From contig JAFYOX010000046.1 of NCBI GenBank assembly GCA_017547755.1, positions 1 to 63,094 on the forward strand: a stretch of DNA of 63,094 nt, in the 5' to 3' direction. A program made the position numbers and the translations under genes. Positions 86-62,574 of the stretch are shown here, piece after piece. Each line of letters opens with the position of its first letter. Positions within the stretch are counted from its first letter, which is position 1. This stretch comes from Clostridia bacterium (GTDB lineage Bacteria > Bacillota > Clostridia > Oscillospirales > CAG-272). Below the pieces are notes generated by a model. The model was not told where the DNA came from, ran no database searches, and saw only the letters and a list, made by a program, of their open reading frames with translations.

Positions 86-143
86 TCAAAAGTTTTTGAA
101 GGTGGGTGCGGGAGGAAACTTTTTTCAAAAAGTTTCCTCCCGC
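86..143. repeat. Palindromic intergenic element, copy A
   Basis: An A/G-rich left module (86-107) is followed by a perfect palindrome with 17-bp arms at 108-124 and 127-143 and the loop TC. It lies 8 bases past the stop codon of the minus-strand gene ending at 151. It belongs to the dispersed family seen again near 23465, 30005, 44113, 48474 and 62539. No T-run follows the stem, so it is not a textbook intrinsic terminator. Confidence 0.8.
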
Positions 144-150
144 GAAAACA

Positions 151-1050
151 TCATTCCTCAAAACAATCGTACGCTTCGAGGGTGTATCGGCCGATTTCGT
201 AGAGGAGTTTTTCCGAGGCGATGCGCAGTCCGAGAGGGGCACGTGCGAGACGGGTGTCCTTTTCGAAGGGACGGCGCTTGTTTGCGGCGGTGAAGGGACT
301 GCCCGCTTCGAAGGTGAAGTAACCCTTGTAGCCGATGTCCATCAGACCGTGCATGACGGCGTCCATGTTCAGCGAACCGCAGAAGGGAACGAGATGGGAG
401 TCGTGATCGCCGTGGTTGTCCTGGATGTGCAGGGCATAGACGTGCTCACCGAGGATGCGCAGGCTTTCGTCCTGGGACATTTCCTGCATATTGCCGTGAC
501 CGGCATCCCAGCATCCGTGGAACAGCGGATGATCCACGTAATCGATCATCGCGCGCTGGTCGGCGGCGTTGTCGATCCAGTACATGCCGTCCACGCACAT
601 TTTGTTGAAGTTTTCGACGAGGATGTTGACTCCGTATTTTTCCGCGGTCGGGAAGAGCTTTTCGTAGAAGATTTTGTTCCGCTCGAACGTTTCTTCCTTC
701 GAGATGCCGTGGAGGTAGCCGGAGTGGATGACGATGTTTTTGATGCCGAGCAGTCCGCAGGCTTCCACACAGCGCGCGGTATCTGCGGTGAACTCACCGC
801 TTTCGTCCGCGAGAGGTCTGCCCATCGGGGAATGCGCCTGAATGAACTGTGCGCCGAGTTCATCCGCTTTGCGCTTCACCTGTTCGAGGTGATCCTGCCA
901 GTCTGCGGCGAAAAATCCGTCTCTGCGGGAGTAATCGGAGCCGAAATTATAGTCCATGAAGCGGAATCCGGCTTCGCGGATGTACTGCATGGATTCCATC
1001 TGCGTGGAGGCGTAGCCGGAGAAATCCCCGGTGGTCGTTGCAAGTTTCAT
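151..1050 (-). CDS. Sugar phosphate isomerase/epimerase-like TIM-barrel protein
   Basis: The protein is 299 aa and matches the xylose isomerase-like/AP endonuclease 2 TIM-barrel superfamily, whose members isomerise or epimerise sugars and polyols with a divalent metal. Visible metal-site strands are VEN near residue 147, WDAGHGN near 183, HIQDNHGDHDSH near 211 and FEAG near 247. No signal peptide is present, so it is cytoplasmic. GGAGG lies just before the ATG. It is the last gene of a minus-strand operon, 19 bases after the ceramidase-like gene. The substrate cannot be read from the sequence; the neighbours suggest sugar catabolism. Confidence 0.8.
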   Translation of the reverse strand: MKLATTTGDFSGYASTQMESMQYIREAGFRFMDYNFGSDYSRRDGFFAADWQDHLEQVKRKADELGAQFIQAHSPMGRPLADESGEFTADTARCVEACGLLGIKNIVIHSGYLHGISKEETFERNKIFYEKLFPTAEKYGVNILVENFNKMCVDGMYWIDNAADQRAMIDYVDHPLFHGCWDAGHGNMQEMSQDESLRILGEHVYALHIQDNHGDHDSHLVPFCGSLNMDAVMHGLMDIGYKGYFTFEAGSPFTAANKRRPFEKDTRLARAPLGLRIASEKLLYEIGRYTLEAYDCFEE

Positions 1051-1069
1051 GGGAGGATCCTCCGTTTTC

Positions 1070-2377
1070 TCAGTAAATGGATTTCAGATTCTGTACGGAG
1101 CCTTCGATGATCCGTTCCGCGATGCCGGAGCAGAATTTCGAACTGTTGGCTTCGTAGCCGCCTTCGTCGTACGCGGACTGCATCGGATAATAGCCTTCAT
1201 AGCCGTTCGAACAGCAGGTGACGATCGTCATGCCGAACGGGGAGCCTTCCTTGATGCCGCGTCCGATGTCCGTGAACGGTTCGCCGGGGATACCGGAGAA
1301 GACCACGTCCCCGAAACGGACGGCGTTGAGATACAGCGTGAAGGAATCCGGGCCGTGTTCGAGCCGCTTGACGCGGTATGCACGCGCAACAACGGTGACA
1401 TATTCCATGCCGGTATACGGGATTTCGCTTTCCCGTCCGGCTTCGTGGAGCGCGATGTATTTTTCGGCGATCTCAAGGTCTTCCGCCGTACCGCGGTTTG
1501 CGGGAACTTCCAGATTATACTGCGCGAATCCGACGGTGTTTCCTTCGGATTTTTCCGCGTAGGTGTAGAGCTTCATCGCTTCGCCGGCGATGCAAAGACC
1601 CATGTGACGGGCGTGATCGTAGCCGCTGCGGCGCGGGATTCCGCTTAACGGATTGAAGTGGTTGGTGTCGCCCTGCGCACCGTTGAAGAAGAGGCACTTC
1701 GTTCCGGGAACGGCGCCTTCGAACGAGCGGCGTACCCATCCCGGCCAGTCGGAAGAGTAGTACGATCCGCTGACAACGTCCGGATGTACCTGGAAATTGA
1801 TGATGACGAGGTCGTCCTTGCCTTCGCGCACGATGCGGACGAGCTGAAGGGTTTCGTCGGGGGTGGAGATCGGATGGTCGATGTCGGGACTGCCGTGCGG
1901 AGGATTGGTCTGCGTCTTACCGTTCTTCATCCTGAAGCGGCGGATGAAGGAGATATCTTCCACTTTTCCGCGCGCGGTGAAGACATCCGCGTCGCTCATG
2001 TCAGCGATCGCCAGTACGGCTGCGTCGGCAAGCTGGCGGAACAGGATGCTGTTGAATGCGGGATCGATGGGGTAGAGGTCACTGCTGATGGCAGGCGCGG
2101 TATGCGTGTGCGTGCAGGCATAGTACACCGCCTCATACGGGAGACCGGTGCGCTGTGCGATCATCTTGCGCAGTTCATCCCCGAATTCCTGGTCGATGCC
2201 GATGACGTCGATGGTGAACACCACAGCGGTGCGTTCACCGTCCGTGAAAGCCAGAACGCTGCCCTTCAGATCATCGAGGCATCCCTGACCGAGACGTTCG
2301 GAATAATAGCCCGAGATAAACAGTCCGTTCGGCGGACGGATATCGGCTCTTGCAAACCCGATTTGCAAAGTATTCAT
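1070..2377 (-). CDS. Neutral/alkaline ceramidase N-terminal-like protein
   Basis: The 435-aa protein resembles the N-terminal catalytic domain of neutral (non-lysosomal) ceramidases. It opens with an IGFARADIRPP-type start and carries the zinc-ligand motif CTHTHTAPA, with H90 and H92. The C-terminal immunoglobulin-like domain of true ceramidases is absent and there is no signal peptide. Hydrolysis of ceramide is therefore unlikely, and this looks like the cytoplasmic bacterial branch of unknown substrate. AAGGAGG precedes the ATG. It sits between the M20 hydrolase (47 bases upstream) and the sugar isomerase in one operon. Confidence 0.75.
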   Translation of the reverse strand: MNTLQIGFARADIRPPNGLFISGYYSERLGQGCLDDLKGSVLAFTDGERTAVVFTIDVIGIDQEFGDELRKMIAQRTGLPYEAVYYACTHTHTAPAISSDLYPIDPAFNSILFRQLADAAVLAIADMSDADVFTARGKVEDISFIRRFRMKNGKTQTNPPHGSPDIDHPISTPDETLQLVRIVREGKDDLVIINFQVHPDVVSGSYYSSDWPGWVRRSFEGAVPGTKCLFFNGAQGDTNHFNPLSGIPRRSGYDHARHMGLCIAGEAMKLYTYAEKSEGNTVGFAQYNLEVPANRGTAEDLEIAEKYIALHEAGRESEIPYTGMEYVTVVARAYRVKRLEHGPDSFTLYLNAVRFGDVVFSGIPGEPFTDIGRGIKEGSPFGMTIVTCCSNGYEGYYPMQSAYDEGGYEANSSKFCSGIAERIIEGSVQNLKSIY

Positions 2378-2424
2378 GAGAGTCCTCCTTATGTGAATTT
2401 CAAAAATTTATCTTATCACTGTTT

Positions 2425-3762
2425 TCAGCATTTTACAACCGCCGTGCCGTCGTCGCGGTACTCGATGCGGTCGCCTTCGCAGTTCAGTCCGTCGATATAG
2501 TCGAGATATTCCCGGAAGGACGGATATGCCGGCTTGAATTCTTCAACGATGGTCTTTGCACGTTCCGCGCCGTCCTTCAGGAGAAGATACAGCATGCCGA
2601 CCTGCCACTTCGCGCAGTCGACGCACGCCGCCACGGGATCGGCGATCTCGTAGTCACTGCCGTGACCGGTACCTTTGCAGCCGCCGCAGTACGGATGGAC
2701 GATGGGCATGACGGCGGACAGGTCGCCCATGTCGGTGCTGCCGGAGCCGACGTGTTCGTTCACGTTCATCGGATAATCCGGGATCGCAAGTTTTGCCGCG
2801 TCTTCCGCGAGCTTCATCATGCCGGTGTCGTTCCGGTGCGGACCGTAGCCGGGTGCGTCGATGATCTCGATGTTCGTGCCGAGGGACAGCGCCGCACCGG
2901 TCAGAGCGCGGTTGACCTTCTGGTTCGCCTTTTTGATTGCTTCGAAACTGCTGCCGCGGACGTAGCTTTCCAGCGTGACCGTCGCGGGGATCGCGTTGAC
3001 CATATCGCCGCCGTGCGTGATGATCGGATGCACGCGGATGATGTCCGGCTCAGCGAAGGTCTCACGGATGGCATTGACGGCGTTGATGCCGCAGGTCGCC
3101 GCATACAGCGCGTTCCGTCCGGACCACGGACTGCCGCCCGCATGAGCTGCCTTGCCCTTGTAGATGATCTTCTTCGACATACAGCCGATGGAGCCTCTGC
3201 CGATGGAATAACTGCCGGAGGTATGCACCATGAACGCCAGATCGACGCCGTCGAAATAGCCGCGGTGCATGAATTCCGTCTTGCCGCCGAAATACCTGAT
3301 CTTTCCGTCCGCTTTCAGCTGGGTGCGGAATTCGATTTCGAGCAGTTCTTCCGCCGGAACGGCGCAGAGACGGATCCGACCGCTCATTCCGTCGAGAATG
3401 CCGGGTTCCTTCAGTGCCGCCGCCACGCCGAGAAGTGCCGCGCACTGTGCGTTGTGTCCGCAGGAATGGACGGCACCCGTCACGGGGTCTGCGTCCGGAT
3501 GGCCGGGACAGATGATGGAGTCAAGTTCGCCGAGAACGAGGACTTCCGGACCCGGACGTCCGGTATCGATCACGGTATAGAACCCGGTGATGCCGTCGGC
3601 AAGGACGAGGTTGTTATAGCCGAGTTCGCGGAATTTTTCTTCCATGTAGCCCGACGTCACGGTTTCACGGAACCCGGTTTCGGGATGCTTCCAGATGAAG
3701 CGCTCCGCTTCCAGAATAAGTTCGCGGTATTTTTCTACTGCATTGCCGATAATTTCTTTCAT
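2425..3762 (-). CDS. M20 family amidohydrolase, AbgB-like
   Basis: The protein has 445 aa. It is a zinc-dependent M20/AbgB-type amidohydrolase, expected to cut an amide bond in a small N-acyl or aminobenzoyl-glutamate-like substrate. Visible features are the CGHN metal motif (AbgB members have CGHN where other M20 enzymes have CGHD), the EE acid pair near residue 139, the GSGSTDMGD motif and a C-terminal GTGHGSD with a metal histidine. GGGAGG precedes the ATG. It is 51 bases after the GH32-like gene in the same operon. There is no signal peptide. Confidence 0.85.
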   Translation of the reverse strand: MKEIIGNAVEKYRELILEAERFIWKHPETGFRETVTSGYMEEKFRELGYNNLVLADGITGFYTVIDTGRPGPEVLVLGELDSIICPGHPDADPVTGAVHSCGHNAQCAALLGVAAALKEPGILDGMSGRIRLCAVPAEELLEIEFRTQLKADGKIRYFGGKTEFMHRGYFDGVDLAFMVHTSGSYSIGRGSIGCMSKKIIYKGKAAHAGGSPWSGRNALYAATCGINAVNAIRETFAEPDIIRVHPIITHGGDMVNAIPATVTLESYVRGSSFEAIKKANQKVNRALTGAALSLGTNIEIIDAPGYGPHRNDTGMMKLAEDAAKLAIPDYPMNVNEHVGSGSTDMGDLSAVMPIVHPYCGGCKGTGHGSDYEIADPVAACVDCAKWQVGMLYLLLKDGAERAKTIVEEFKPAYPSFREYLDYIDGLNCEGDRIEYRDDGTAVVKC

Positions 3763-3813
3763 GGAATTATCCTCCCTGTTTGTGTCTGTTTCTGTATATC
3801 CGCTGTTTTTCGC

Positions 3814-5340
3814 TCAGTACGGATTGGACGGCATCATTTCCCATGCGTCCGCTTTGATCAGATGCCTGCCGCCGATAACTTTTACGCCTGTCGCGTCTTC
3901 TGCGGTCGGATAGACCCGGCGGCAGATCGCCTGACGCTGGTTTGCAAAGACTTCCACCACGGATTTGTCTGCGAAAATGTCGAGGACGAGCGGTTCTCCC
4001 GACGCCAGAGCAAACGGTGCTTCTTCGCGGATGCGCCGTCCTTCCGTACCGCTGTCGGTGGTATCCATGACCAGTTTTCCGGATGCGGGATCGGCATAGA
4101 TACGGGTCTCCTGCGTACCGTCCGCACTGCAACGGACCGCAAAGCCGCAGGATTCTGCAGATCCGGCTTCAAATACGGCGGTCAGGCGGAAAGATTCCCC
4201 GTTTTTGACCGGCAGAACGTCGGTATTTCCGCACCAGTGCTGCGGATTGTACTGCAGGCGTTCGAGTTCACGGACAGGTGCGGTATGGAGCACGCCGTTT
4301 TCGAGCCAGAGCGTCCGGGGAAGGCTGTATACGCCGCTCCATCCGAAGCGGTCGAAATCGTTGTCGAGGTTGTCGGTGAGCCAGAACCATGCGATCTGGC
4401 GGTTCCGGTCGTCGATGAGAGCTTCCGGTGCGAAGCAGGTATTGTCCCGCCAGCTCATGCGTCCGTGCTGTTCGGGAAGGAAGGTCTCGCCGTCGCCGGA
4501 AAGAGAACCGACGTAGTACTGCGCGCCCTTGTTGTGCGCGATGAAGAGCTGAAGCCATTTGTCCGTGAATACGCCGTCCTGCTCGCGGTCCGGAAGGGGC
4601 AGGAAACTCGGACACATATCGTCTTCGGTCGCATCGGGCCAGTCTTCGCCGGCGTGCGGATTTTTGTAGAACCGGTGGAGATATTCCCAGGTTTTCAGAT
4701 CCTTCGAACGGAAGAGATCGGTCCAGTCGCCGCGCAGGCGTTCGTCGGAGTCTTCCGCACGGCCGTATTTGTTCAGCACGCAGAGATTGCCGGTCTGCAT
4801 ATAGTACCAGCCGTCCTTTTTCCAGATGTTGCTGGGGTCTGCGTTGCCGATATAGTCGGTCTTTCCGTCGATTTCGAGTTCGAGGATCCCCCATTCGGTG
4901 CCGTTGATGGCGATCGGCTCCATCCGGTACCAGTCATCATACGGCGGCTTCGCATACGCCATCGCGATCCCGCTGCGGTCTTTCGCCGGATCGACTGCGG
5001 CAAATTTCCAGAATGTGAGGTATGCCGTTCCGTCTTCGTCAACAAACGCACCGCCGCTGAAGCATCCGCCGTCCCCGTCCTGCGTGGTCAGCGCGTCTTT
5101 GTGATGCCGCCAATGGAGCAGATCCGCGCTGGACATATGTCCCCAGTGGAAGCCGCCGCTGCCGCTGTTCCGGTACAGGTACATCAGATGATACCGTCCG
5201 TCCGCGTAAAACGCCCCGTTCGGATCCCCCGGGATCCCCAGATCGTCCGGGATCGCAAAATGATACCCCGGCCGGTAAGGATCCGCGATCATCTTCTCCC
5301 GATACGCACGTGTTCCAAGAATCGTCTCCTTCATTTCCAT
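3814..5340 (-). CDS. Glycoside hydrolase family 32-like protein
   Basis: The five-bladed beta-propeller family GH32 hydrolyses beta-fructosides. The nucleophile motif DPNG (D39) is present. The usual WSGS reads CFSGG, and the RDP stabiliser motif reads ADP. The acid/base segment reads EDDMCPSF, so Glu is not directly before Cys as in the classical ECP, although an E lies three residues earlier. A C-terminal beta-sandwich module follows. The start at 5340 is preferred over the ATG at 5346, because AAGGAG is then 7 bases away. It is the first gene of a minus-strand operon. Activity on fructans is uncertain. Confidence 0.8.
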   Translation of the reverse strand: MEMKETILGTRAYREKMIADPYRPGYHFAIPDDLGIPGDPNGAFYADGRYHLMYLYRNSGSGGFHWGHMSSADLLHWRHHKDALTTQDGDGGCFSGGAFVDEDGTAYLTFWKFAAVDPAKDRSGIAMAYAKPPYDDWYRMEPIAINGTEWGILELEIDGKTDYIGNADPSNIWKKDGWYYMQTGNLCVLNKYGRAEDSDERLRGDWTDLFRSKDLKTWEYLHRFYKNPHAGEDWPDATEDDMCPSFLPLPDREQDGVFTDKWLQLFIAHNKGAQYYVGSLSGDGETFLPEQHGRMSWRDNTCFAPEALIDDRNRQIAWFWLTDNLDNDFDRFGWSGVYSLPRTLWLENGVLHTAPVRELERLQYNPQHWCGNTDVLPVKNGESFRLTAVFEAGSAESCGFAVRCSADGTQETRIYADPASGKLVMDTTDSGTEGRRIREEAPFALASGEPLVLDIFADKSVVEVFANQRQAICRRVYPTAEDATGVKVIGGRHLIKADAWEMMPSNPY

Positions 5341-5388
5341 ACGCATTCTCCTTTTCCTTTTCTCGTTCCCAAGGTTTTCTCTGGCTCT

Positions 5389-5417
5389 ATTTTACTGCAC
5401 ATTGTCGATTTTTTCAA
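5389..5417 (-). promoter_or_regulatory. Sigma-A-type promoter for the GH32-led operon
   Basis: On the minus strand, TTGAAA (5417-5412) and TAAAAT (5394-5389) are separated by 17 bases. It faces away from the asparaginase promoter at 5518, so the two saccharide operons are divergently transcribed. Confidence 0.65.
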
Positions 5418-5448
5418 TACATTTCCGCAGATTTTTTGTGCAGAGTTT

Positions 5449-5507
5449 ATTGGGGAGTGATTTTGGAGAAAAGTTTCTTCCAAGCGTTTCCTCAAACGTT
5501 CCCCAAT
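5449..5507. repeat. Degenerate palindromic element between divergent operons
   Basis: Outer arms ATTGGGGA (5449-5456) and TCCCCAAT (5500-5507) flank A/G- and T/C-rich sequence with motifs (GGAGAAAAGTTT, TTTCCTC) like those of the dispersed palindromic family. The inner pairing is poor. It may be a decayed copy, but the similarity is weak. Confidence 0.3.
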
Positions 5508-5517
5508 GAACTCCTAC

Positions 5518-5546
5518 TTGATTTTTCGGGAAGAGTTTGTTATACT
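5518..5546 (+). promoter_or_regulatory. Sigma-A-type promoter for asparaginase operon
   Basis: TTGATT (5518-5523) and TATACT (5541-5546) are separated by 17 bases. The predicted transcript start is near 5553, which excludes upstream in-frame starts and supports the ATG at 5580 with AAGGAG at 5565-5570. Confidence 0.7.
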
Positions 5547-5579
5547 ATTTCCAGAGAAAAAATGAAGGAGCAGGGAAGA

Positions 5580-6602: not shown

Positions 6603-6628
6603 GGGATCCCGATTTACAGGAGGACAGA

Positions 6629-9226: not shown

Positions 9227-9284
9227 AACGGTCAGAATACGGAATACAGAATCAGAAAGAATCGGAAATCAGGAGGAAAACGGG

Positions 9285-23443: not shown

Positions 23444-23464
23444 GTTATATCCTTTCTTTTTCTT

Positions 23465-23548
23465 GGGGAAACCTTTTTAAGGAAAAGGTTTTCCCGACTT
23501 GCTTTAGCAAGTCGGAACCATACCCCTTTCCAAACCTTATTCAAACAG
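23465..23548 (-). repeat. Palindromic intergenic element, copy B (in the kor operon)
   Basis: On the minus strand the order matches copy F: a GGAAAGGGGT-type left module (23548-23515), a hairpin with 8-bp arms CGACTTGC (23507-23514 with 23495-23502), then a near-perfect A/G and T/C palindrome (about 23465-23494). It lies between the alpha and beta genes and must be transcribed with them. Confidence 0.75.
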
Positions 23549-23593
23549 GGGATTGGATGAGGTTGGGTGCAAATCTATAATTCGGAAAATAAT

Positions 23594-29864: not shown

Positions 29865-29962
29865 TGGATTCCCAAAAAACTTTCGGACTATTGTACTGAC
29901 GAAGTAAGTGCAGATCGTTTGTACTATAAAGTTCAGTTATCCAAAATCCCTTTTCATAGTAT

Positions 29963-30040
29963 AAAGCTTTTTGAAAGGGGTCCGGTTCCGACCAACGGAG
30001 CTGGTCGGGGAAAACTTTTTCTCGAAAAAGTTTTCCCCGA
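29963..30040 (+). repeat. Palindromic intergenic element, copy F (full length)
   Basis: This is the most complete copy. It has a left module AAAGCTTTTTGAAAGGGGT (29963-29981), a hairpin CCGACCA/TGGTCGG (29988-29994 with 30002-30008), then a perfect 17-bp palindrome at 30005-30021 and 30024-30040 with a TC loop. It lies before the rseC-like gene. The 98 bases between 29865 and 29962 contain nothing else I can name. Confidence 0.8.
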
Positions 30041-30066
30041 GAAACTATTTTTTCTAAGGAGTACCT

Positions 30067-30522
30067 ATGCGGCAGCGTGCGGTTGTGATTCGAACGGAAG
30101 GGAAGATTGCGGAAATTGAGGTCAGCCGGTCGTCGATGTGTGACGGATGTCAGAAGAACGGCGGCTGTGAGCATCATTGTGAGCTGTCCGGGCTGATTGC
30201 GGGCAGCGGGAAGAAGATGAAAACAACTGCGCAGAACAGGATCGGCGCAAAGGCAGGCGACATCGTGGAGGTGGAGACCGGGAGTACGACTGTGCTCGGG
30301 TATGCCGCGCTTGTGTTCCTGATGCCGATTGTCGTGAGTGCGGTCTTTTATTTTCTCGCGGAAGCGGTTTTTGCCTCCGGAACTGCCGGAGTGATCGCCG
30401 CGGCTGTGGGATTTGTCCTTTCGTTTGCCGGAATCTCCGCGGTCGAACGCTCCAAAAAGAAATCCCTGCCCGATATCGTGATCGCCGACATCGTGGAACG
30501 CCCGGAAAATAACGGGCTCTGA
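30067..30522 (+). CDS. rseC: RseC/MucC-family membrane protein
   Basis: The 151-aa protein has an N-terminal cysteine cluster (C25-x2-C28-x5-C34-x3-C38), a beta-rich domain and two hydrophobic helices (about 79-96 and 101-120). RseC homologues act in electron transfer, next to Rnf and SoxR-reducing systems, or in sigma-E control. Rnf genes are not in the window, so its partner is unknown. The cysteines match the family pattern and may hold a metal cluster. Confidence 0.85.
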   Translation: MRQRAVVIRTEGKIAEIEVSRSSMCDGCQKNGGCEHHCELSGLIAGSGKKMKTTAQNRIGAKAGDIVEVETGSTTVLGYAALVFLMPIVVSAVFYFLAEAVFASGTAGVIAAAVGFVLSFAGISAVERSKKKSLPDIVIADIVERPENNGL

Positions 30523-39283: not shown

Positions 39284-39294
39284 AAGTGGAAACC

Positions 39295-39315
39295 TCAGGG
39301 AAACGTTTTCCCTGA
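39295..39315. repeat. Short palindrome after hemZ, copy C (degenerate)
   Basis: Arms TCAGGGAAA (39295-39303) and TTTCCCTGA (39307-39315) leave a 3-base centre. It lies 12 bases past the hemZ stop. The A/G-T/C character links it loosely to the dispersed family. Confidence 0.45.
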
Positions 39316-39355
39316 ATCTCTTTTCATAAACTTTGAATCTGGAAAAGGGAAACTC

Positions 39356-43814: not shown

Positions 43815-44096
43815 ATGAAATTTTTGACTCAAAATATGTTTGTTCGCTTTCTCCTGCTGATTTTCACGATCGGTTGTGTGATCAGTCTGGTTGTTCTGCG
43901 GCTTGACAATAACGAAAAGAAATCGCAGGCCGCCGTTCTGCGCGGTGAAGTGGAAGAAATGCAGAACTACATCAGCGAACTGGAAGCCGATATTGCGAAG
44001 CCGTTCGACGACGAATATGTCGCCGAAATTGCGCACGGAGAACTCGGACTTCGCTACCCGCAGGAAGTCATTTTCTACAGTGACGGCGAGGGTTGA
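43815..44096 (+). CDS. divIC: DivIC/FtsB septum initiator
   Basis: The 93-aa division protein has a short cytoplasmic tail, one membrane helix (about 12-30) and a coiled coil with KKSQAAVLRGEVEEMQNYISELE, then a GELGLRYPQEVIFY segment conserved in FtsB/DivIC. It acts in the divisome with DivIB and FtsL. It closes the conserved mazG-to-divIC cluster. Confidence 0.92.
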   Translation: MKFLTQNMFVRFLLLIFTIGCVISLVVLRLDNNEKKSQAAVLRGEVEEMQNYISELEADIAKPFDDEYVAEIAHGELGLRYPQEVIFYSDGEG

Positions 44097-44112
44097 TAAA
44101 AGAATCATTTTT

Positions 44113-44162
44113 GTCGGGGAAACCTTTTTGAAACAAAGGGTTTCCCCGACTTGCTCCGCAAG
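44113..44162 (+). repeat. Palindromic intergenic element, copy D
   Basis: Arms of 12 bp (44113-44124 and 44139-44150) flank a T/A-rich centre. A second hairpin CTTGC/GCAAG (44150-44154 and 44158-44162) follows, with a TCC loop. It lies 17 bases past the divIC stop. It shares the CTTGC hairpin with copy B. Confidence 0.75.
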
Positions 44163-48446: not shown

Positions 48447-48452
48447 CAGTAT

Positions 48453-48510
48453 AAAAAGGTTTTTAGAAGGGGGTTGGGGAAACCTTTTTCCTTAAAAAAG
48501 GTTTCCCCAA
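48453..48510 (+). repeat. Palindromic intergenic element, copy E
   Basis: A left module (48453-48473) resembling AAAGGTTTTTAGAAGGGGG is followed by a palindrome with 16-bp arms at 48474-48489 and 48495-48510. It lies between convergent genes, 13 bases from the M28 stop codon. Confidence 0.8.
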
Positions 48511-48522
48511 GAAAACTTGATT

Positions 48523-49743
48523 TTATCTCTTTCTGAGCAGATAACGGTCGAGCTTGTCCTTCATGTTGTCGGGCATTTCGCGCTTGACGGGGCAGCGGAC
48601 AGCGTTTGCCATGCGGTCAGCGAATGCGCAGATGAAGTCGATGTCCTTTACCATGTGTTCGCCCTTCATGAGCTTGATGGTGTCGTAGGAATTGTGGATC
48701 GTCGCAACGGGACCACCTGCGGCACGTGCAAAGGAGATCGCCGGGATACCCTTGTCCGCGAACGGGGTGGAGTCGCTGGAGTAAACGTCCTGATACGGAG
48801 CAACCTGGAAGCCCTTTTCGAGACCGAGGTAGTTGACGTAGCCGACGAGTTCGTTTTCGGAGGTGCAGCATGCGATGAATCTGCCCATGATGGAGCCGAT
48901 CATGTCGATGTTGATGTTGAAGACGATGTTCTTCAGTTCTTCTTCATGTGCCGCAACATACGCCTTGGAGCCGAGAAGACCGCGTTCTTCGCTTCCGCAG
49001 AAGATGAAGCGGAAACCGTAGCGGTGCGGATGGCTGAGGAAGTATTCCGCGAGACCGAGAAGACCGATACAGCCGGACATATTGTCGTACGCGCCGTTGG
49101 AGAGAGAAGTGGTGTCGTAGTGCGCGGTGCAGACGATGATTTCGTCGATTTCGCCGGGCATATCCATGACAACGTTGCGGGATTCGCCGACGTATTCGTC
49201 CTGATCAAGAACGATCTTGACGGTCTTCACGTCGTTTTCCACGAGCTTGACTGCGTTCTTCGCGTTGATGTTCACGCCGGGAATCTGCGGATTGTCCGCG
49301 CGTACAAAGGAACGGAGTTCCTTCTGGTCGATGTCCCAGTCGACGTAATTCGTGTTGCCGTCGTAGGTGATGAAGCCGACTGCGCCGTTTTCGCAGAGAT
49401 CCTTGTAGGTCCATGCGCCCATGCCGGAGTCGAGCAGAACGATCTTGCCCTTGACCTGGGAGATGGAAACCTTGTCGTTGGAAGGCATGTAGTACAGGGG
49501 AGCTTCCACTTCGTGGGAACCGGAGTTGAGATAACCCTTGCATTCCACTTCCACGCCGTCGGCGTAGAGCTTTGCGGTCTTCATGGTAGCCATCTGTACT
49601 TCGAAGGTTTCGAGATGCGCTTCGAGACCGAGAGCGGCACAGCAGTCCTTGAGATAGTTTGCCGCCTGGAGTTCTTCGGCGGAACCACCGGTGTGTACGT
49701 ACGCGGTGTCGCGGAAGATTTTCATAATCTGTTCAGCAGTCAT
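48523..49743 (-). CDS. M28-family zinc aminopeptidase
   Basis: The 406-aa peptidase has the M28 metal motifs TAHYDT, GAYDNMSG, CGSEERGLLGS (catalytic Glu pair), NINIDMIGS and IHNSYDT, with a PA-like insertion (GKIVLLDSGMGAW...). There is no signal peptide, so it acts in the cytoplasm, removing N-terminal residues from peptides. It stands alone with its own promoter. The start ATG is at 49743; no better ribosome site is visible. Confidence 0.9.
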   Translation of the reverse strand: MTAEQIMKIFRDTAYVHTGGSAEELQAANYLKDCCAALGLEAHLETFEVQMATMKTAKLYADGVEVECKGYLNSGSHEVEAPLYYMPSNDKVSISQVKGKIVLLDSGMGAWTYKDLCENGAVGFITYDGNTNYVDWDIDQKELRSFVRADNPQIPGVNINAKNAVKLVENDVKTVKIVLDQDEYVGESRNVVMDMPGEIDEIIVCTAHYDTTSLSNGAYDNMSGCIGLLGLAEYFLSHPHRYGFRFIFCGSEERGLLGSKAYVAAHEEELKNIVFNINIDMIGSIMGRFIACCTSENELVGYVNYLGLEKGFQVAPYQDVYSSDSTPFADKGIPAISFARAAGGPVATIHNSYDTIKLMKGEHMVKDIDFICAFADRMANAVRCPVKREMPDNMKDKLDRYLLRKR

Positions 49744-52080: not shown

Positions 52081-52090
52081 ATCCTTTGAA

Positions 52091-52141: not shown

Positions 52142-52170
52142 TTGTTTTTTGCCTGTTCCTGTGCTATACT
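52142..52170 (+). promoter_or_regulatory. Promoter for XRE paralogue 2
   Basis: TTGTTT (52142-52147) and TATACT (52165-52170) are separated by 17 bases; GGGAGG precedes the ATG at 52201. Confidence 0.6.
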
Positions 52171-52200
52171 GAATCCATCAAAAACAGGGAGGAATCCGAC

Positions 52201-53598: not shown

Positions 53599-53664
53599 AA
53601 TATCAAAATATATGAAATAAAAATGAATTTATATTACAGTTTTATTGCATTTGCATAAAAACCA

Positions 53665-53693
53665 TTGCAATCCGCACCTCCGTGTGATATCAT
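53665..53693 (+). promoter_or_regulatory. SLH gene promoter
   Basis: TTGCAA (53665-53670) and TATCAT (53688-53693) are separated by 17 bases, placing the transcript start near 53700. Confidence 0.6.
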
Positions 53694-53700
53694 ATCCTCG

Positions 53701-53725
53701 CGGCGGACGAAAGAACGCTCCGCCG
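53701..53725 (+). promoter_or_regulatory. Possible mRNA 5'-end hairpin
   Basis: CGGCGGA (53701-53707) pairs with TCCGCCG (53719-53725), loop 11 bases. It sits at the predicted transcript start, where a stem of this kind can protect mRNA from decay. A flanking ATATC/GATAT pair may extend it. Confidence 0.5.
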
Positions 53726-53755
53726 GCTGATATACCTACTAAAACGGAGGATACC

Positions 53756-56695: not shown

Positions 56696-56726
56696 ATAAA
56701 TTTCCTGTGCCATAGGGAAAACGAAA

Positions 56727-56754
56727 AAGCTCATTCTGCGGAATGGGCTTTTTT
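56727..56754 (+). terminator. Terminator after the SLH gene
   Basis: Ten-bp arms (56727-56736 and 56741-56750, one G-U pair) with a 4-base loop are followed by a T-run. Confidence 0.82.
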
Positions 56755-56756
56755 CA

Positions 56757-56784
56757 TTGATTTTTCGGAAAACTGTGTTATAAT
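56757..56784 (+). promoter_or_regulatory. Promoter for the PHP/rhamnosidase operon
   Basis: TTGATT (56757-56762) and TATAAT (56779-56784) are separated by 16 bases, and GGAAAGGA precedes the ATG at 56819. Confidence 0.65.
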
Positions 56785-56818
56785 AATAAGGAAAGAAAAT
56801 GCCCGGAAAGGAATCTCC

Positions 56819-57592
56819 ATGACCGACGCTCACGTTCACCTCGAGCGAGGCCCGTACACCGCCGCATGGGCGGAAGAATTCGTGACTGCCGCAAAAAATG
56901 CCGGCATCACGGAGCTGTGCCTGCTCGACCACTCCTATCTGTTCCGCGAATTTGCGCCGCTGTACGATGATCTCCGGCATTCGTCGGACTTTATCGACCG
57001 CTGGCTGTCCCGCAAAGCGGGGAAGCATACTCTCGACGAATATTTCCGGCTGATCGAAGACTTGCGGCCGCGGGATTACGGGATCACGCTCCGTTTCGGG
57101 CTTGAGATCTGCTTCCTTCCGGAACAGACTGACGCTATTGCACGTCTGATCGAACGGATGCCGCTCGATTTTACGGTCGGAAGCGTCCATTTTATCGATA
57201 ATTTCGCGTTCGATCACACGCCGGATCTCTGGCAGGGTGTGGATACCGACCGTGCGTACCGCCGTTTTTTCGAACATTCCATCGCTCTTGCGGAATGCGG
57301 ACTGTTTGACGGCATCGCACACCCCGATTCCGTGAAATTGTTCGGACACAGGCCGTCCTTCCCATTGGAGGAATCGTATGACACTCTCGCCGCCGCGCTG
57401 GCGTCCGCCGGAATGTACGCGGAGCAGAACAGCGGCATCTCCCGCCGGACCTCCGCGGAAGCCGGGATGGATCCCGCGCTGTATGCCGCCATGAAGAGGC
57501 ACGGCGTTCCCATCCGCACCGCATCCGACGCGCATACGCCTGCCGATGTCGGTGCAGGCATCCGTTATTTTTACGAAAATCATCTCATCTGA
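56819..57592 (+). CDS. PHP-domain histidinol-phosphatase-like protein
   Basis: The 257-aa PHP enzyme has MTDAHVHLERGPYT (HxH metal motif), LLDHSYLF, GLEICFLP, SVHFI and a late SDAHTPADVG. These match the HisK-type histidinol-phosphate phosphatase family, but many relatives act on other phosphates. It is 23 bases before the GH78 gene and shares its promoter. A role with rhamnose or its phosphate is possible; no his genes are present here. Confidence 0.85.
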   Translation: MTDAHVHLERGPYTAAWAEEFVTAAKNAGITELCLLDHSYLFREFAPLYDDLRHSSDFIDRWLSRKAGKHTLDEYFRLIEDLRPRDYGITLRFGLEICFLPEQTDAIARLIERMPLDFTVGSVHFIDNFAFDHTPDLWQGVDTDRAYRRFFEHSIALAECGLFDGIAHPDSVKLFGHRPSFPLEESYDTLAAALASAGMYAEQNSGISRRTSAEAGMDPALYAAMKRHGVPIRTASDAHTPADVGAGIRYFYENHLI

Positions 57593-57614
57593 ACCGCATA
57601 GAAAGGGAAGTACC

Positions 57615-60167
57615 ATGATCCAGGTTACCGCAGTATATCTCGACGGTGCGAAAATCGGCGAAGGAAGCCGGAAGTGCATCACCGATACCGACACCCCCAC
57701 ATTCTCGTGGGCTGTCCGCTCCGATAAGAAAAATGACCTCCAGAAAGCCGTCCGCGTGACCGTTTTTGATGACAAAACCGTTTACTGGGACAGCGGCATT
57801 GTAAAAAAGCCCGCGCAGTCCCTGAAATATGCGGGAACAAAGCTCCCGCATGGTACCCGCATCGATGTCAGCATCACCGTCACGGGAAGTGCCGGCGAAG
57901 AATCCCGTCCGTTCGTCACTTCGTTCGTGAACGGTGTCCTTACGGAAGACGAATTCGCGGGAAACTGGATCACCTCCGCCGAGCCGAACGACGGACGTGC
58001 GATCTATTTCCGCCGCGATTTCGATCTCGCCGGGGAAGTCGAATCCGCGTGCCTGTATGCCGCCGGCTACGGATATCACGCCGTGACGATCAACGGCATC
58101 GAAGCGGACGACGCGCTTCTCGATCCCGCACATTCGAATTACGCGAAAACCGCGTATTATGTGGTGTATCCCGACATTGCCCGCCTGTTTACGGGGATCC
58201 ATAACACCATCGGCATTACGGTCGCGGACGGCTGGCGGAACAATACCACACCGCTTGTCGAAAACGCCGTCGGCGGACGGAAGATTGAATTTGCCGGAGA
58301 ACCCGTCCTCTGGGCAATGCTGAAGCTCAATTATACCGACGGAACCAGTGAGATCATCGCAACGGACGGTGCATGGCAGTGCAAATTCGGTGCGATTGCC
58401 GCTTCCTCCATCTTTAACGGGGAGACCTACGACGCGGCGAAATCCGACCCGAACTGGAATACCGGCGACGCACGCGGCTTTGTTTCCTCGAAAATCACCG
58501 ATGCTCCCGGCGGAGCTCTCCGTCCGATGGTTCTCGAACCGATCCGCGTACAGAAAGAATATCCCGCGATCGAGATCACACAGCCGTCCGAAGATCGTTT
58601 CGTCGTTGATTTCGGGCAGAATATCTCCGGCGTTGTCCGGATGGTTCTTCCGGAAGATCTCACCATGGGACAGACCATCCGAATCTGCCATGCCGAAGAG
58701 CTCGACGAAGACGGCAGTCTCTATACTGCGCCGCTCCGAGATGCCCTCTGCACCGATACCTATATCGCATCCGGGGATTCCCGCGATCTGTTCCTCTGGC
58801 AGCCGCAGTTCACCTATCACGGATTCCGCTATGCCGAAGTCACCGGCGTGAAGTCCCTCGACAAGCGCGATATCACCGCCGTTATGTTCTGCACGGACAT
58901 CAAAAACGGAAGTTTCTTCCGCTGCGGAAGCGCGCTGGCGAACAAAATCCAGGAAAACATCGTCATGACCGAGATGGACAATATGCACTCCATCCTCACC
59001 GATTGTCCGCAGCGCGACGAACGCATGGGCTGGATGAACGACGCGACCGTCCGTTTCGAAGAAACTCCGTACAATTTCGATATCGGCCGCATGTTCCCGA
59101 AGATCGTCCGCGACATCATGGCGGAACAGCGCGAACACGGCGAATTCACCTGCTGCTGTCCGTTCGTTTTCGGCGGACTTCCGGCGGATCCCGTCTGTTC
59201 GTCCTTCCTCATTGCCGGAATGCAGGCGTATATGCACACCGGAAATCTCGAAATTCTCCGTGAAGCATACGACCGCTTTGCCGCATGGGAGGATTTCCTC
59301 CTTTCCCAAAGTGAAAATTACATCGTCAAGTACAGCTACTACGGCGACTGGGCGGCTCCGGAATATGCCTGCGCGGCGGAAGAAAACGCGGCAAACAAGG
59401 AGACCGACGGCATCCTGATGTCCACCGGCTACTCCTACTTCAACTGCAAGGCTCTTGCCAAGATGGCGCGTTACCTCCATCGTACCGATGACGCGTTCAA
59501 GTACATCGACCTTGCGATCAAGGTCGGCAAGGCGTTCCTTACGAAGTGGTGGCATCCCGAAACGGCAACGGTCGGCAGCGGATCGCAGGGCGCACAGGCG
59601 TTTGCGCTCTGGCTCGGTCTCATTCCCGGCGATTACGAACAAAAAGCCGCCGCTGTCATGTGCCGCGATCTGCGCGAACGGAATTTCCGCTTCACGACGG
59701 GCAACCTCTGCACGCGGTATCTCCTCGATATGCTTGCGAGATACGGCTATGTCGACGACGCATGGAAGCTGATGACAAATGAAACCTATCCGTCCTTCGG
59801 CTACATGATCCAGCATGAAGCGACGACGATCTGGGAACGCTTCGAACTCAAGAAGAATCCCGGCATGAATTCCCACAATCATCCGATGTACGGTGCGGCA
59901 GGATACTTCTTCTACGCATACATCGCCGGCATCGTTCCGACGGCACCGGGGTACGACAAGGTCCGCATCAAGCCGTACATTCCGACGCAGCTGGAATCCG
60001 CACACGCCGTGGTCGATACCGTGAAGGGCGACATTTCCGTCCGTTGGTCGAAACGCTACGGCAAGACGAGACTGTTCGTCGATATTCCGTTCGGTGTGAC
60101 TGCCGAAGTGGATTTCGGCGGCAAGGTGACGACGGTCGGTTCGGGCTATCATACGTTTGAAGCATAA
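57615..60167 (+). CDS. Alpha-L-rhamnosidase, GH78
   Basis: The 850-aa inverting enzyme removes terminal L-rhamnose from glycosides and pectin side chains. It has N-terminal beta domains, the GH78 catalytic signature DCPQRDERMGW with C464-P465-Q466-R467-D468-E469-R470 (E469 is the likely acid), and an (alpha/alpha)6 barrel, then a C-terminal beta domain. There is no signal peptide. ATG 57615 is preferred over 57546, because GGGAAG lies before it and the earlier frame overlaps the PHP gene. It is convergent with the glycyl radical gene. Confidence 0.92.
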   Translation: MIQVTAVYLDGAKIGEGSRKCITDTDTPTFSWAVRSDKKNDLQKAVRVTVFDDKTVYWDSGIVKKPAQSLKYAGTKLPHGTRIDVSITVTGSAGEESRPFVTSFVNGVLTEDEFAGNWITSAEPNDGRAIYFRRDFDLAGEVESACLYAAGYGYHAVTINGIEADDALLDPAHSNYAKTAYYVVYPDIARLFTGIHNTIGITVADGWRNNTTPLVENAVGGRKIEFAGEPVLWAMLKLNYTDGTSEIIATDGAWQCKFGAIAASSIFNGETYDAAKSDPNWNTGDARGFVSSKITDAPGGALRPMVLEPIRVQKEYPAIEITQPSEDRFVVDFGQNISGVVRMVLPEDLTMGQTIRICHAEELDEDGSLYTAPLRDALCTDTYIASGDSRDLFLWQPQFTYHGFRYAEVTGVKSLDKRDITAVMFCTDIKNGSFFRCGSALANKIQENIVMTEMDNMHSILTDCPQRDERMGWMNDATVRFEETPYNFDIGRMFPKIVRDIMAEQREHGEFTCCCPFVFGGLPADPVCSSFLIAGMQAYMHTGNLEILREAYDRFAAWEDFLLSQSENYIVKYSYYGDWAAPEYACAAEENAANKETDGILMSTGYSYFNCKALAKMARYLHRTDDAFKYIDLAIKVGKAFLTKWWHPETATVGSGSQGAQAFALWLGLIPGDYEQKAAAVMCRDLRERNFRFTTGNLCTRYLLDMLARYGYVDDAWKLMTNETYPSFGYMIQHEATTIWERFELKKNPGMNSHNHPMYGAAGYFFYAYIAGIVPTAPGYDKVRIKPYIPTQLESAHAVVDTVKGDISVRWSKRYGKTRLFVDIPFGVTAEVDFGGKVTTVGSGYHTFEA

Positions 60168-60180
60168 AGCGAAAGAAAGC

Positions 60181-60214
60181 AAATGGGATGGACTCTTTTC
60201 AGTCCATCCCATTT
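60181..60214. terminator. Bidirectional terminator, GH78 and glycyl radical enzyme
   Basis: Perfect 14-bp arms at 60181-60194 and 60201-60214 with a 6-base loop lie between the convergent genes and are flanked by A/T-rich sequence. Confidence 0.85.
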
Positions 60215-60224
60215 AATTTTATTC

Positions 60225-62393
60225 TCAATAATTCGTTCTTGCGATGACGTTGTCCTGCAGATCCTTCGACAGTCTTACGAAATAATCGCTGTAGCCGCCG
60301 ACGCGTACGATCAGGTCACCGTACTGTTCCGGATGCTTCTGCGCTTCAAGCAGATCGTCTGCCGACAGAACGTTGACCGAAAGCTGCTGACCGCCGCCTG
60401 CGAAGTATGCCTTTGCGAGATGGATGAAGGAATCCATGCCTTTTTCCGTCGCAAACAGCTTCTTGTCGAAGCGGAGCTGGAAGACAAATCCGCTCGTGAC
60501 TTCCGTCTGGTCGTAAACGAGCGCGGATTTTACCGCCGCCGTCGGACCGTTTCTGTCCTGACCGGGAACTGCACCGATGCAGTCGGAGAACATCGGGTCT
60601 CCGGAGAGATGTCCGTTCGGCAGAGCGCCGCAAGCACGGCCGTTGTTCGCCGCACGGCTGAACGTACTGCATCCGCCGGCAAACTTGCCGCCGCGGAACG
60701 TCCGCTTGGTCTTGAGGTATGCGAACCAGTGGTCGGACAGTTCCTTCATGATGCTGTCGACGTACGGATCGTCGTTGCCGAACTTCGGTGCGGACATCAG
60801 TACCATCCGCATATCTTCGTAACCTTCGAAATTCTTCTTCAGCGCGTCGATGAGCTGTGCCATCGTCCAGTGCTTTTCGTCGAAAATAAACTTTTTGATC
60901 GCCGCAAGGGAGTCCACGCAGTCCGGCATCCCTTCGGAGAGGATCTGACCGTCGCCGTACAGCGGTCCGCCGTTCTTGTAGTCGCGTCCTTTTTCAAGGC
61001 ATCCTTCCAGCAGGCACGAACGGAGCGGGGAAGGAGAATAGCGCGCGTAGGTCATCTGCGAGGAGTTCGACAGCGAGACCGAAACGTCCGTGACATGATC
61101 GACCTGCCAGAACAGCGCTTCCATCAGTTCTTCGAACGAGGTGAACTTGTCCGCTTCACCGGTGTGAACGCTCACCTGACGGCCGGACATGACGTCAAAA
61201 CCGTCGTACAGCGCGAATTCCAGACACTTCCCGAAGTTGACTTCGCCGTCTTCGAGACCCATGTGCGACTTGCCCATGATGTCGACCTGATTGCATCCGT
61301 TCATGCAGTACAGATGGCTGTGGACTGCCGGGATGCCCATCTTTTCGAGCGCCGGACACATGACTTCGTCGTTGTACAGCGCGGGCATGCCGATCCCCGT
61401 TGCGAGAACTTCCGCGATCCGCTGCCAGATCTTTTCGGGCGTGTTGCGGTGTACGCGCAGGGTAATGTTCGGCGTCTGATACTTGTATTTTTCCGCGAGA
61501 TCAAGCACTGCGTAGGAAACGGCGTTGGTCTTGTCGTTCCAGTGTTCGTCGGAACCGCAGATGCAGAGATTCCACGTCCGCGTGTCGTGGAACGCCTGCC
61601 AGAGACGTTCGAGCTGGAGGAACGCATTGTCCGCATCGTCCATGTTCCAGAAATCTTCGAAGAACTGGTCGAGTCTGCCGGGCGAGTCGATGCCGTCAAA
61701 CGTGAAGACCAGCCAGAACATCAAAATCGCCGACTGCATATTGTATGCCGGATTCTGCGGGATCACGGAATAAACGTCCGCCATTTTCAAAAGTTCCGCC
61801 TTAGCTGCCGGGGCGTCGGTCTGTTCCGCGAGATCAAGCGCACATGCCTTCAGACGTTCGCCGAGCGTGTCGAGCGCATCCATGAAAATGTCGCATCCGT
61901 CGTAGAAATCATCCTTGCCGGCGTTTTTCGCACGGTATTCCGCGATCATCGCACGGAGACCCTTCGTACCGAGATGCAGAAGACGGTCGTAGTCCGGATT
62001 GGAGTGACCTGCCCAGCCGCCGCCCCAGCACGCCGCCGTGGACGCAAGCTCACGCTGATAGCGGTCCTGATGCGCGCCGATCAGCGAACCGGTGTTGAAA
62101 TCCTTCACGTATTCACGGATCTCGTTCAGTTCCGCCGCAAATTCCGGGAACTTTTCCGCATTTTCGTGGAATTTTCCTTCGTTTACCGCCACGCCGCTGC
62201 CGAAATTGTACGTCATCCCCGACGTGGAACAGCCGGAAGCCGTGTAGCCGATGTAGTTTTTCGTGTCGATCCAGACGGAGCAGTGCTTTGCCGCCTCACG
62301 CGACGCCATCGCCATCCGCACATTCAGCGGGCGTTCGCGGTTTTCATAGAATGTCGCGCCGTAAGGCTCGATCGCCAGAATTCGTTCGTTCAT
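60225..62393 (-). CDS. Glycyl radical enzyme with GCNQ cysteine loop
   Basis: The 722-aa glycyl radical enzyme of the pyruvate formate-lyase superfamily has a GHSNPDYDRLLHLG-type N-terminal motif, a Cys loop MNGCNQVD with C367, and the radical site VRVGGYSDYF with G700. Family dehydratases, lyases and decarboxylases usually read GCxE; here Q369 replaces the Glu base, so the reaction cannot be named. No activating enzyme (radical SAM) is next to it in the window. AGGAGG selects the start at 62393. It needs an anaerobic cell. Confidence 0.88.
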   Translation of the reverse strand: MNERILAIEPYGATFYENRERPLNVRMAMASREAAKHCSVWIDTKNYIGYTASGCSTSGMTYNFGSGVAVNEGKFHENAEKFPEFAAELNEIREYVKDFNTGSLIGAHQDRYQRELASTAACWGGGWAGHSNPDYDRLLHLGTKGLRAMIAEYRAKNAGKDDFYDGCDIFMDALDTLGERLKACALDLAEQTDAPAAKAELLKMADVYSVIPQNPAYNMQSAILMFWLVFTFDGIDSPGRLDQFFEDFWNMDDADNAFLQLERLWQAFHDTRTWNLCICGSDEHWNDKTNAVSYAVLDLAEKYKYQTPNITLRVHRNTPEKIWQRIAEVLATGIGMPALYNDEVMCPALEKMGIPAVHSHLYCMNGCNQVDIMGKSHMGLEDGEVNFGKCLEFALYDGFDVMSGRQVSVHTGEADKFTSFEELMEALFWQVDHVTDVSVSLSNSSQMTYARYSPSPLRSCLLEGCLEKGRDYKNGGPLYGDGQILSEGMPDCVDSLAAIKKFIFDEKHWTMAQLIDALKKNFEGYEDMRMVLMSAPKFGNDDPYVDSIMKELSDHWFAYLKTKRTFRGGKFAGGCSTFSRAANNGRACGALPNGHLSGDPMFSDCIGAVPGQDRNGPTAAVKSALVYDQTEVTSGFVFQLRFDKKLFATEKGMDSFIHLAKAYFAGGGQQLSVNVLSADDLLEAQKHPEQYGDLIVRVGGYSDYFVRLSKDLQDNVIARTNY

Positions 62394-62427
62394 AAATACC
62401 TCCTGGGAGCGTATATTTGTTACCCCC

Positions 62428-62456
62428 ATTATACCGAAAACCGCCGTGTCCGTCAA
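62428..62456 (-). promoter_or_regulatory. Glycyl radical enzyme promoter
   Basis: On the minus strand, TTGACG (62456-62451) and TATAAT (62433-62428) are separated by 17 bases. Confidence 0.75.
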
Positions 62457-62460
62457 TAGC

Positions 62461-62508
62461 AAAAAAGGATTTGCCGCCGACAAAATGTCCGCGTACAAAT
62501 CCTTTTTT
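62461..62508. terminator. Terminator-like hairpin upstream of the glycyl radical gene
   Basis: AAAAAAGGATTTG (62461-62473) pairs with CAAATCCTTTTTT (62496-62508). It would end minus-strand transcripts from the E1-beta-like gene before the glycyl radical promoter. Confidence 0.75.
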
Positions 62509-62513
62509 TATCC

Positions 62514-62574
62514 TTTTCAAAAGCTTTTGAAAAGGGGTCCGGGGAAAAACTTTTCTCGAAAAGTTTTTCCCCGG
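62514..62574. repeat. Palindromic intergenic element, copy G
   Basis: A 20-base perfect palindrome (62514-62533) and the AAGGGGTCC module are followed by a perfect 17-bp palindrome at 62539-62555 and 62558-62574 with a TC loop. It lies 20 bases past the stop of the partial E1-beta-like gene. Confidence 0.82.

What the first reader, a model, noticed from the sequence alone, without database searches (positions are those of the whole stretch)
86..62574. Dispersed family of palindromic intergenic elements with compensated arms
At least six clear copies (108-143, 23465-23548, 29963-30040, 44113-44162, 48453-48510, 62514-62574) and two degenerate ones (5449-5507, 39295-39315) share an A/G-rich then T/C-rich palindrome, a conserved AAAGGGGT-type left module and, in some, a second hairpin. 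Base changes in one arm are matched in the other (for example ACTTTTT/AAAAAGT against CCTTTTT/AAAAAGG), so pairing itself is conserved. Five lie 8-20 bases past a stop codon, yet none ends in a classical T-run. This looks like a REP/BIME-type or MITE-type family with a possible 3'-end role in mRNA.
Basis: partly seen in the sequence, partly recalled or inferred. Interest (0 to 1): 0.72.

Follow-up and report, generated by a model that had tools for sequence, protein, structure and literature searches.

The report
Repeats with a mirror-matched third strand
This gut bacterium carries well over a hundred copies of a short DNA hairpin beside its genes, each preceded by a stretch that mirrors the hairpin as the third strand of a triple helix would, and similar modules turn up in at least three bacterial phyla.

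Summary
The basic module (~60 nt) is a hairpin plus a 5' left module. The left module is a near mirror image of the hairpin's 5' arm and co-varies with it: 0.743 against 0.608±0.010 shuffled. In 23 paired units the own arm fits better than the partner's in 21, worse in 1. At 24 orthologous sites with changed arms: 15 for, 4 against, 5 ties. Mirror matching is the code of an intrastrand DNA triplex, here one that would change strands half-way. Of 159 oriented copies 114 face a gene stop, 113 of them within 31 nt; 37 face a start. Copy number runs from 0 to at least 131 within one genus. The module also occurs in other Clostridia, Verrucomicrobiota and Desulfobacterota. REP/RAYT membership fails on two tested features. 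Closest known: BoxC/PIT/TMECO triplex repeats; their published search rules, re-coded, catch 16 of 159 copies. No biochemistry exists and function is open.

The parts
81..146 (+). Module copy: third strand 93-106 (TTTTTGAAGGTGGG), hairpin 108-143; the hairpin faces the stop of the minus-strand gene ending at 151
   Evidence: R1 74 bits; left GGTGGG with arm GGGAGG
23464..23549 (-). Module copy with a nested hairpin (about 23496-23515) between main hairpin 23465-23495 and left module (about 23523-23536)
   Evidence: R1 26 bits for the hairpin; sequence; fold
29956..30043 (+). Module copy: third strand 29967-29980, nested hairpin about 29982-30004, main hairpin 30005-30040; about 26 nt before the ATG at 30067
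   Evidence: R1 47 bits; fold
44096..44162 (.). Hairpin 44113-44150 plus nested hairpin 44151-44162 without a recognisable left module; degenerate copy
   Evidence: R1 32 bits on plus, 28 on minus; sequence
48448..48513 (+). Module copy: third strand about 48460-48473, hairpin 48474-48510; the hairpin faces the stop of the minus-strand gene ending at 48523
   Evidence: R1 70 bits; gene calls
62513..62577 (+). Module copy: third strand 62524-62537 (CTTTTGAAAAGGGG), hairpin 62538-62575; faces the stop of the minus-strand gene at 62594
   Evidence: R1 76 bits; fold z -5.7
39292..39341 (-). Marginal match, possibly a decayed copy
   Evidence: R1 25 bits, E 1.1e-3

Best explanation
It is a dispersed repeat family whose working unit is a ~60-nt module: a hairpin plus a 5' segment that lies back along the hairpin as a third strand. 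From the base upward the third strand would read the purines of the 5' arm antiparallel (G on G-C, A or T on A-T), cross over at the purine/pyrimidine switch (arm C, third G; the third strand is one nucleotide shorter than the arm), and then read the purines of the 3' arm in parallel (T on A-T, C on G-C). In copies with a CCT-type loop its 5' end (AAGG) could also pair with that loop. Two modules often face each other around a lineage-specific inverted core, giving units of about 180-280 bp, mostly 215-230. Units are added into gene gaps with a hairpin next to a gene boundary, mostly just behind a stop codon. I think the fold forms on single-stranded DNA, for instance at the replication fork, and is what lets the element be copied or kept, as in REP-like systems but with an unknown enzyme. 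Shown: the family, the co-variation, the placement, patchy copy number, filled and empty sites. Inferred: that mirror coupling means a physical triplex, that DNA rather than RNA is the folded molecule, and the spreading mechanism.
For: Third strand fits its own arm better than shuffled partners: 108 unique copies, 0.743 against 0.608, sd 0.010, best of 500 shuffles 0.639. Loci not classed as near relatives: 40 unique copies, 0.687 against 0.551, sd 0.018, best shuffle 0.611. Purine-zone lengths: r 0.777, 0 of 5000 permutations reach it; third exactly one nucleotide shorter in 99 of 125. Paired top C of the arm goes with third C in 9 of 9, against 0 of 148 others. First base after equal G-runs: arm A with third A 44, T 13, G or C 0, of 57; second base the same in 51 of 57. 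CCT loop with outer GG 27 of 29, against 6 of 128. In 23 paired units own arm beats partner arm in 21, loses in 1, ties in 1 (p 9e-5), while left1-left2 complementarity is 0.548 against 0.582±0.029 shuffled. Orthologous sites with changed arms: 15 for, 4 against, 5 ties. G179, another family with a different core, keeps the coupling, e.g. arm CCTTTCT with third GGTTTCT. One unit is missing between the same genes in relatives. Copy number 0 to at least 131 in 25 genomes of one genus.
Against: No biochemistry. Left module and arm are inherited together and shuffles ignore relatedness; lessen this but do not remove it. The scoring rules were partly set after looking at the copies (arm C with third G; one search came first); one search used them unchanged. 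Mismatches occur (e.g. arm GGGGAAGGGAC with third GGGGTAGAAG). Four of 24 orthologous contrasts and one paired unit go the wrong way; three of the 24 are misparsed hairpins (two for, one against) and three have flank identity of only 66-75%. For E. coli TMECO in vivo footprinting did not show a stable triplex (PMC4666352, part of the discussion read). Negative supercoiling would favour extrusion between divergent genes, yet 5 of 142 classed copies lie there. No mobilising enzyme and no target-site duplication were shown.
Confidence: 0.6

Rival explanations
1. A gene-end element acting in mRNA: the hairpin about 12 nt behind the stop codon ends transcripts or blocks 3'-to-5' exonucleases, perhaps with the C/U-rich stretch behind it as an RNA third strand.
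For: 113 of 114 stop-type copies within 31 nt of the stop; in other genera and phyla 36 of 62 copies have an opposing stop within 40 nt on the hairpin side, against 464 of 3100 random non-ORF positions; only 5 of 142 copies lie between divergent genes.
Against: No T-run on either side; 37 of 159 copies abut a start codon; no significant exclusion of ordinary terminators; T in place of A in the left module would put A in the mRNA-sense third strand, which pyrimidine-motif rules do not take; E. coli PIT motifs showed no terminator activity (cited in PMC4666352).
Confidence: 0.25
2. A mobile or gene-converted palindrome of REP/BIME kind in which the left module is only a protein-binding foot; the mirror likeness is a by-product of a few founding subfamilies.
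For: Inverted pairs, patchy copy number, filled and empty sites; left module and hairpin are inherited together.
Against: Many subfamilies, in several genera and phyla, each obey the mirror rule; ends of units mix freely yet each keeps its own match; arms and left modules change together at orthologous sites; no RAYT association.
Confidence: 0.3
3. Compensated arms arise from template-switch correction of imperfect palindromes (a recalled mutational process), without selection for structure.
For: Arms are near perfect in most copies while subtypes change quickly between relatives: 24 of 30 orthologous pairs differ in the arm.
Against: Such correction makes inverted copies and cannot make the mirror-order match between left module and arm.
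Confidence: 0.1

Closest known systems
BoxC / PIT element / TMECO intrastrand triplex repeats (Holder et al. 2015, PMC4666352, read in part)
   Same: Short intergenic repeats in many copies with a third strand matched by triplex rules; a 3-nt loop next to the third strand; strong copy-number differences between related genomes; inverted pairs of two subtypes occur.
   Different: TMECO is a single purine-motif 9-nt triplex of proteobacteria with no distance trend to genes. Here the third strand would change strands, the duplex runs on into an A/T hairpin (143 of 159 copies fail the re-coded ITxF rules), placement at gene boundaries is tight, and several phyla carry it.
REP / BIME elements with RAYT
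   Same: Intergenic palindromes, often in inverted pairs, lineage-specific amplification, enriched at gene 3' ends.
   Different: No GTAG foot; the Y1/RAYT loci examined hold no element; a separate GTAG-type repeat flanks the RAYT of this genome.
Designed alternate-strand triplexes (passages of PMC3660596 seen; older chemistry recalled)
   Same: A third strand that reads purines first on one strand and then on the other.
   Different: Synthetic oligonucleotides, with another strand polarity in PMC3660596 than proposed here; not a natural repeat.

Membership tests
REP/BIME with RAYT | GTAG-type foot next to the hairpin (definition recalled) | tested here: not met
   Left modules read AAAG or AAGG, T-run, G, A/G, G-run
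REP/BIME with RAYT | Copies flank or track a RAYT | tested here: not met
   0 R1 matches in 16 Y1/RAYT loci, 49.6 kb; RAYT presence does not follow copy number: G013 at the cap has no RAYT match, G007 with 7 copies has 5; own RAYT flanked by another, GTAG-type repeat
REP/BIME with RAYT | Inverted pairs with a linker | tested here: met
   21 of 24 neighbours closer than 800 nt are head-to-head, 20 of them 111-207 nt apart; 7 units in G179
MITE | Matching terminal inverted repeats | tested here: not met
   Arm similarity of the two ends 0.667 against 0.665±0.030 shuffled, 23 units
MITE | Target-site duplication | tested here: inconclusive
   Flanks of 19 units looked at by eye only; one (C4) shows CGTTC on both sides, no general pattern seen
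MITE | Filled and empty sites in relatives | tested here: met
   Unit at L285 6223-6448: two element hairpins in G013, one in G004, none in seven others; gaps of 9, 27 and 44 nt in G017, G018, G008
Intrastrand triplex motif, ITxF classes I-IV | Three consecutive blocks, stem 6-15, loops 1-6, at most one mismatch | tested here: not met
   16 of 159 copies pass my re-coding of the rules
Intrastrand triplex motif, ITxF classes I-IV | Third strand matched to the duplex by triplex rules | tested here: met
   with the exceptions told in the Against line
Intrastrand triplex motif, ITxF classes I-IV | Triplex shown by CD or NMR | not testable with these tools
   No wet-lab tool
Intrinsic terminator | T-run directly behind the hairpin | tested here: not met
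   Outer side GAGAAA then A/T-rich and G-poor; inner side C-run then CTTTC-like
Rfam family | Match above the gathering score | tested here: not met
   0 in the window; permissive matches of one copy lie far below cut-off, best 28 bits against 90

The most novel reading that the evidence does not exclude
A natural, strand-switching intrastrand triplex is the conserved core of a repeat family spread over at least three phyla (Bacillota, Verrucomicrobiota, Desulfobacterota). Selection keeps Hoogsteen matching between a third strand and a hairpin while sequence, core and host change, and some copies close the third strand by pairing its end with the hairpin loop.
Probability: 0.5. Interest if true: 0.82.

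Novelty: new variant of a known kind. Interest (0 to 1): 0.64.

Why it matters
Whether cells use triple-helical DNA has long been argued with little evidence of selection. Co-variation in mirror order across subfamilies, gene sites and phyla is the kind of evidence that established RNA secondary structures. It would make triplex function testable with simple paired mutants, and it suggests that surveys built on short-loop, single-strand rules miss strand-switching motifs.

Tried and rejected
Tried, and rejected or inconclusive: (1) RAYT as mobilising enzyme: no copies in 16 Y1/RAYT loci, no link with copy number. (2) Left module as half of a stem with the partner's left module: complementarity not above shuffled. 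(3) Left module as its own small hairpin: a stem of 5 bp or more in 16 of 155, about 4% in mononucleotide shuffles. (4) Exclusion of ordinary terminators: 49 gene ends, not significant. (5) Phage or plasmid carriage: one 65-nt copy as query, no match at E 1e-3 in either collection. (6) Rfam: nothing. (7) A longer autonomous version in G179: around its two solitary copies R1 gives only weak partners nearby; I looked no further. (8) Literature: the searches listed no paper that I recognised as describing this element; they cover an open-access library only. Papers: PMC4666352 read in part (introduction part 1, results parts 1-2, ITxF method, TMECO characterisation, discussion part 1); PMC3660596 passages; PMC1590033 outline and abstract; all others as listings.

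Limits and dropped rows: of 178 hairpins 159 could be oriented and 158 parsed. Stretches of the own genome were chosen because they hold matches. The gene caller is a simple script. Near relatives among L145-L224 were picked by eye and record names, so the 'other' set may hold some kin, and those loci were fetched with a fixed pattern that restrains variation in at least one copy each. L225-L253 were fetched but not analysed. In one search seven of the eight correlations (four features, two sets) have at most 3 of 5000 permutations at or above the observed value; T-run length in the other set has 47. In one search, 31 of 62 copies overlap some open frame of 100 codons or more (frames, not genes), and the random positions were taken outside such frames, so that comparison is rough. 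Recalled, from no call: the GTAG definition of REPs, older alternate-strand triplex chemistry, quasi-palindrome correction, phylum placement of named genera.

Full report
Observation. A pattern derived from the window copies matches the host genome G000 (3.05 Mb, 117 contigs, 74.8% complete) 29 times, and 0 times when read backwards. A covariance model R1 (29 copies, 65 positions, 16 pairs) finds 150 matches at E up to 0.1, the number of scored candidates being capped at 150 of 2,532. In the window R1 finds four strong copies, two weaker ones and one marginal; the degenerate copy at 5449-5507 is not found. Named near relatives, by DNA identity of shared stretches, are RGIG1778 ('Clostridia bacterium', goat cecum) and SIG618 ('Oscillospiraceae bacterium').

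Anatomy. In its own direction the module reads roughly AAAG-TTTTT-G-AAA-GGGG-TNN-[GGGGAAAAC-TTTTT-loop-AAAAAG-TTTTCCCC]-GAGAAA. Some copies carry a nested hairpin between left module and main hairpin, or a longer apical part. Of 24 neighbouring modules closer than 800 nt, 21 are head-to-head, 20 of them with 111-207 nt between hairpins. The stretch between them is itself an inverted repeat around AAAGTGCAGATTTGAAGT in most of the 19 units printed (by eye).

Mirror coupling. The left module is a near mirror image of the 5' arm. Scored by triplex rules (arm G with third G; arm A with third A or T; arm T with third T; arm C with third G; the last rule set after seeing the data), 108 unique copies average 0.743 against 0.608±0.010 when left modules are dealt out anew (500 shuffles, maximum 0.639). 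Forty unique copies from loci not classed as near relatives give 0.687 against 0.551±0.018; 47 from near relatives give 0.664 against 0.543±0.015. Purine-zone lengths correlate (r 0.777, 0 of 5000 permutations) and the third strand is exactly one nucleotide shorter in 99 of 125; in the other set r is 0.523 (3 of 5000) and 38 of 47 are one shorter. Interiors follow each other: AAGAAA with TAGAA, AGAAA with TGAA, AGGAAA with TGGAA, AGAAAA with AGAAA. A paired C at the top of the arm goes with C in the third strand in 9 of 9, and in 0 of 148 other copies. CCT-type loops go with an outer GG in 27 of 29 against 6 of 128, which could be Watson-Crick closure of the third strand onto the loop.

Controls against simple descent. 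In 23 head-to-head units the third strand fits its own arm better than the partner's arm in 21, worse in 1, tie in 1 (Wilcoxon p 9e-5); the two left modules are no more complementary (0.548 against 0.582±0.029) and the two arms no more alike (0.667 against 0.665±0.030) than shuffled ones. So ends mix freely and each carries its own matched pair. At sites matched by their outer flanks in relatives, 24 of 30 pairs have different arms; cognate combinations beat swapped ones in 15, lose in 4 and tie in 5 (sign test p 0.019; per own element, 21, 14 for and 4 against, Wilcoxon p 0.0016). Of those 24, three rows are misparsed hairpins (two for, one against) and three have flank identity of 66-75%; they were left in. 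In G179, from another family of the same order, seven units share long conserved halves with a different inner stem (TTTTTGGCGAGGGGTAATT) and a variable centre of about 52 nt. One of its hairpins keeps the coupling closely (arm CCTTTCT, third GGTTTCT), the other more loosely (arm GGGGGAGACCCTTTT, third GGGGGAGTGATTTT).

Interpretation as triplex. Mirror order is what a third strand needs; Watson-Crick pairing and copying errors make inverted or direct order. From the base, the third strand would lie antiparallel to the purines of the 5' arm (purine motif; at the first base after equal G-runs third A 44, T 13, G or C 0, of 57), then cross and lie parallel to the purines of the 3' arm (pyrimidine motif, T and C). 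Strand-changing triplexes are known from designed DNA (passages of PMC3660596; older chemistry recalled). The introduction of PMC4666352 says that purine-motif triplexes cannot form in RNA, which favours DNA. That paper's search rules, re-coded, find 16 of 159 copies.

Placement. With a simple gene caller, 114 of 159 oriented copies have the hairpin edge next to an opposing stop codon, 113 of them within 31 nt; 37 lie next to a start codon, 28 of them within 34 nt; 4 are inside called genes; 4 have no outer gene in the fetched stretch; 5 of the 142 with both neighbours called are divergent. In other genera and phyla 36 of 62 copies have an opposing stop within 40 nt on the hairpin side (8 of 14 in the Verrucomicrobiota, Desulfobacterota and Defluviitaleaceae loci), against 464 of 3100 random non-ORF positions; a rough comparison. 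Ordinary terminators stand at similar distances; exclusion between the two is not significant (49 gene ends).

Mobility. A class-wide sample of 196 genomes has matches in 6, own genome included (stricter filters). One unit is present in G013, altered in G004, and without a recognised element in seven other relatives, three of which have gaps of 9-44 nt between the same genes. RAYT is not the obvious partner: the one in G000 is flanked by GTAGGGGCGATTC-type repeats, 16 Y1/RAYT loci of the genus hold no element, and G013, at the cap, has no RAYT match (the genome is 73% complete). No phage or plasmid match was found with one copy as query.

Distribution.

Conclusion. The finding is real and is best described as a new variant of intrastrand-triplex repeats, in REP/BIME-like arrangement but not a member of the REP/RAYT system on the features tested. 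That the coupling reflects a physical triplex is likely but unproven. Function is open between a single-stranded-DNA structure that maintains or spreads the repeat and a gene-end role.

Noticed in passing
L254 1459-1959 (G000:C89:46479-46976), flanks about 1300-1450: A RAYT-like transposase frame of 166 aa followed by inverted GTAGGGGCGATTCACGAATCGCCC-type repeats: a separate, ordinary-looking REP/RAYT pair in the same genome.
   Followed up: partly
L306, L311, L313, L315, L317, L319, L321 (genome G179): Units whose hairpins and inner stem are nearly invariant while the centre and outer flanks vary; outer flanks look like inverted arms matched within a copy and different between copies (by eye).
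   Followed up: partly
L167, L178, L187, L202, L211, L220 (Verrucomicrobiota): A second small palindrome like GGATGCGCAGCATCC stands just upstream of the module in these loci.
   Followed up: no
L300 and L305 (genome G023): Repeated stretches between genes that in G000 flank an element, with TTTAAACTGCAGTGTATACCCAT or GGAGTTTTTTCCGTCAGGGAAAAACTCGG motifs.
   Followed up: no
L007, L008, L026; window 29956-30043: Copies that sit 14-26 nt before start codons; L007, L008 and L026 show no Shine-Dalgarno sequence in the gap, so a transcript from upstream would carry the hairpin just before the start codon.
   Followed up: no
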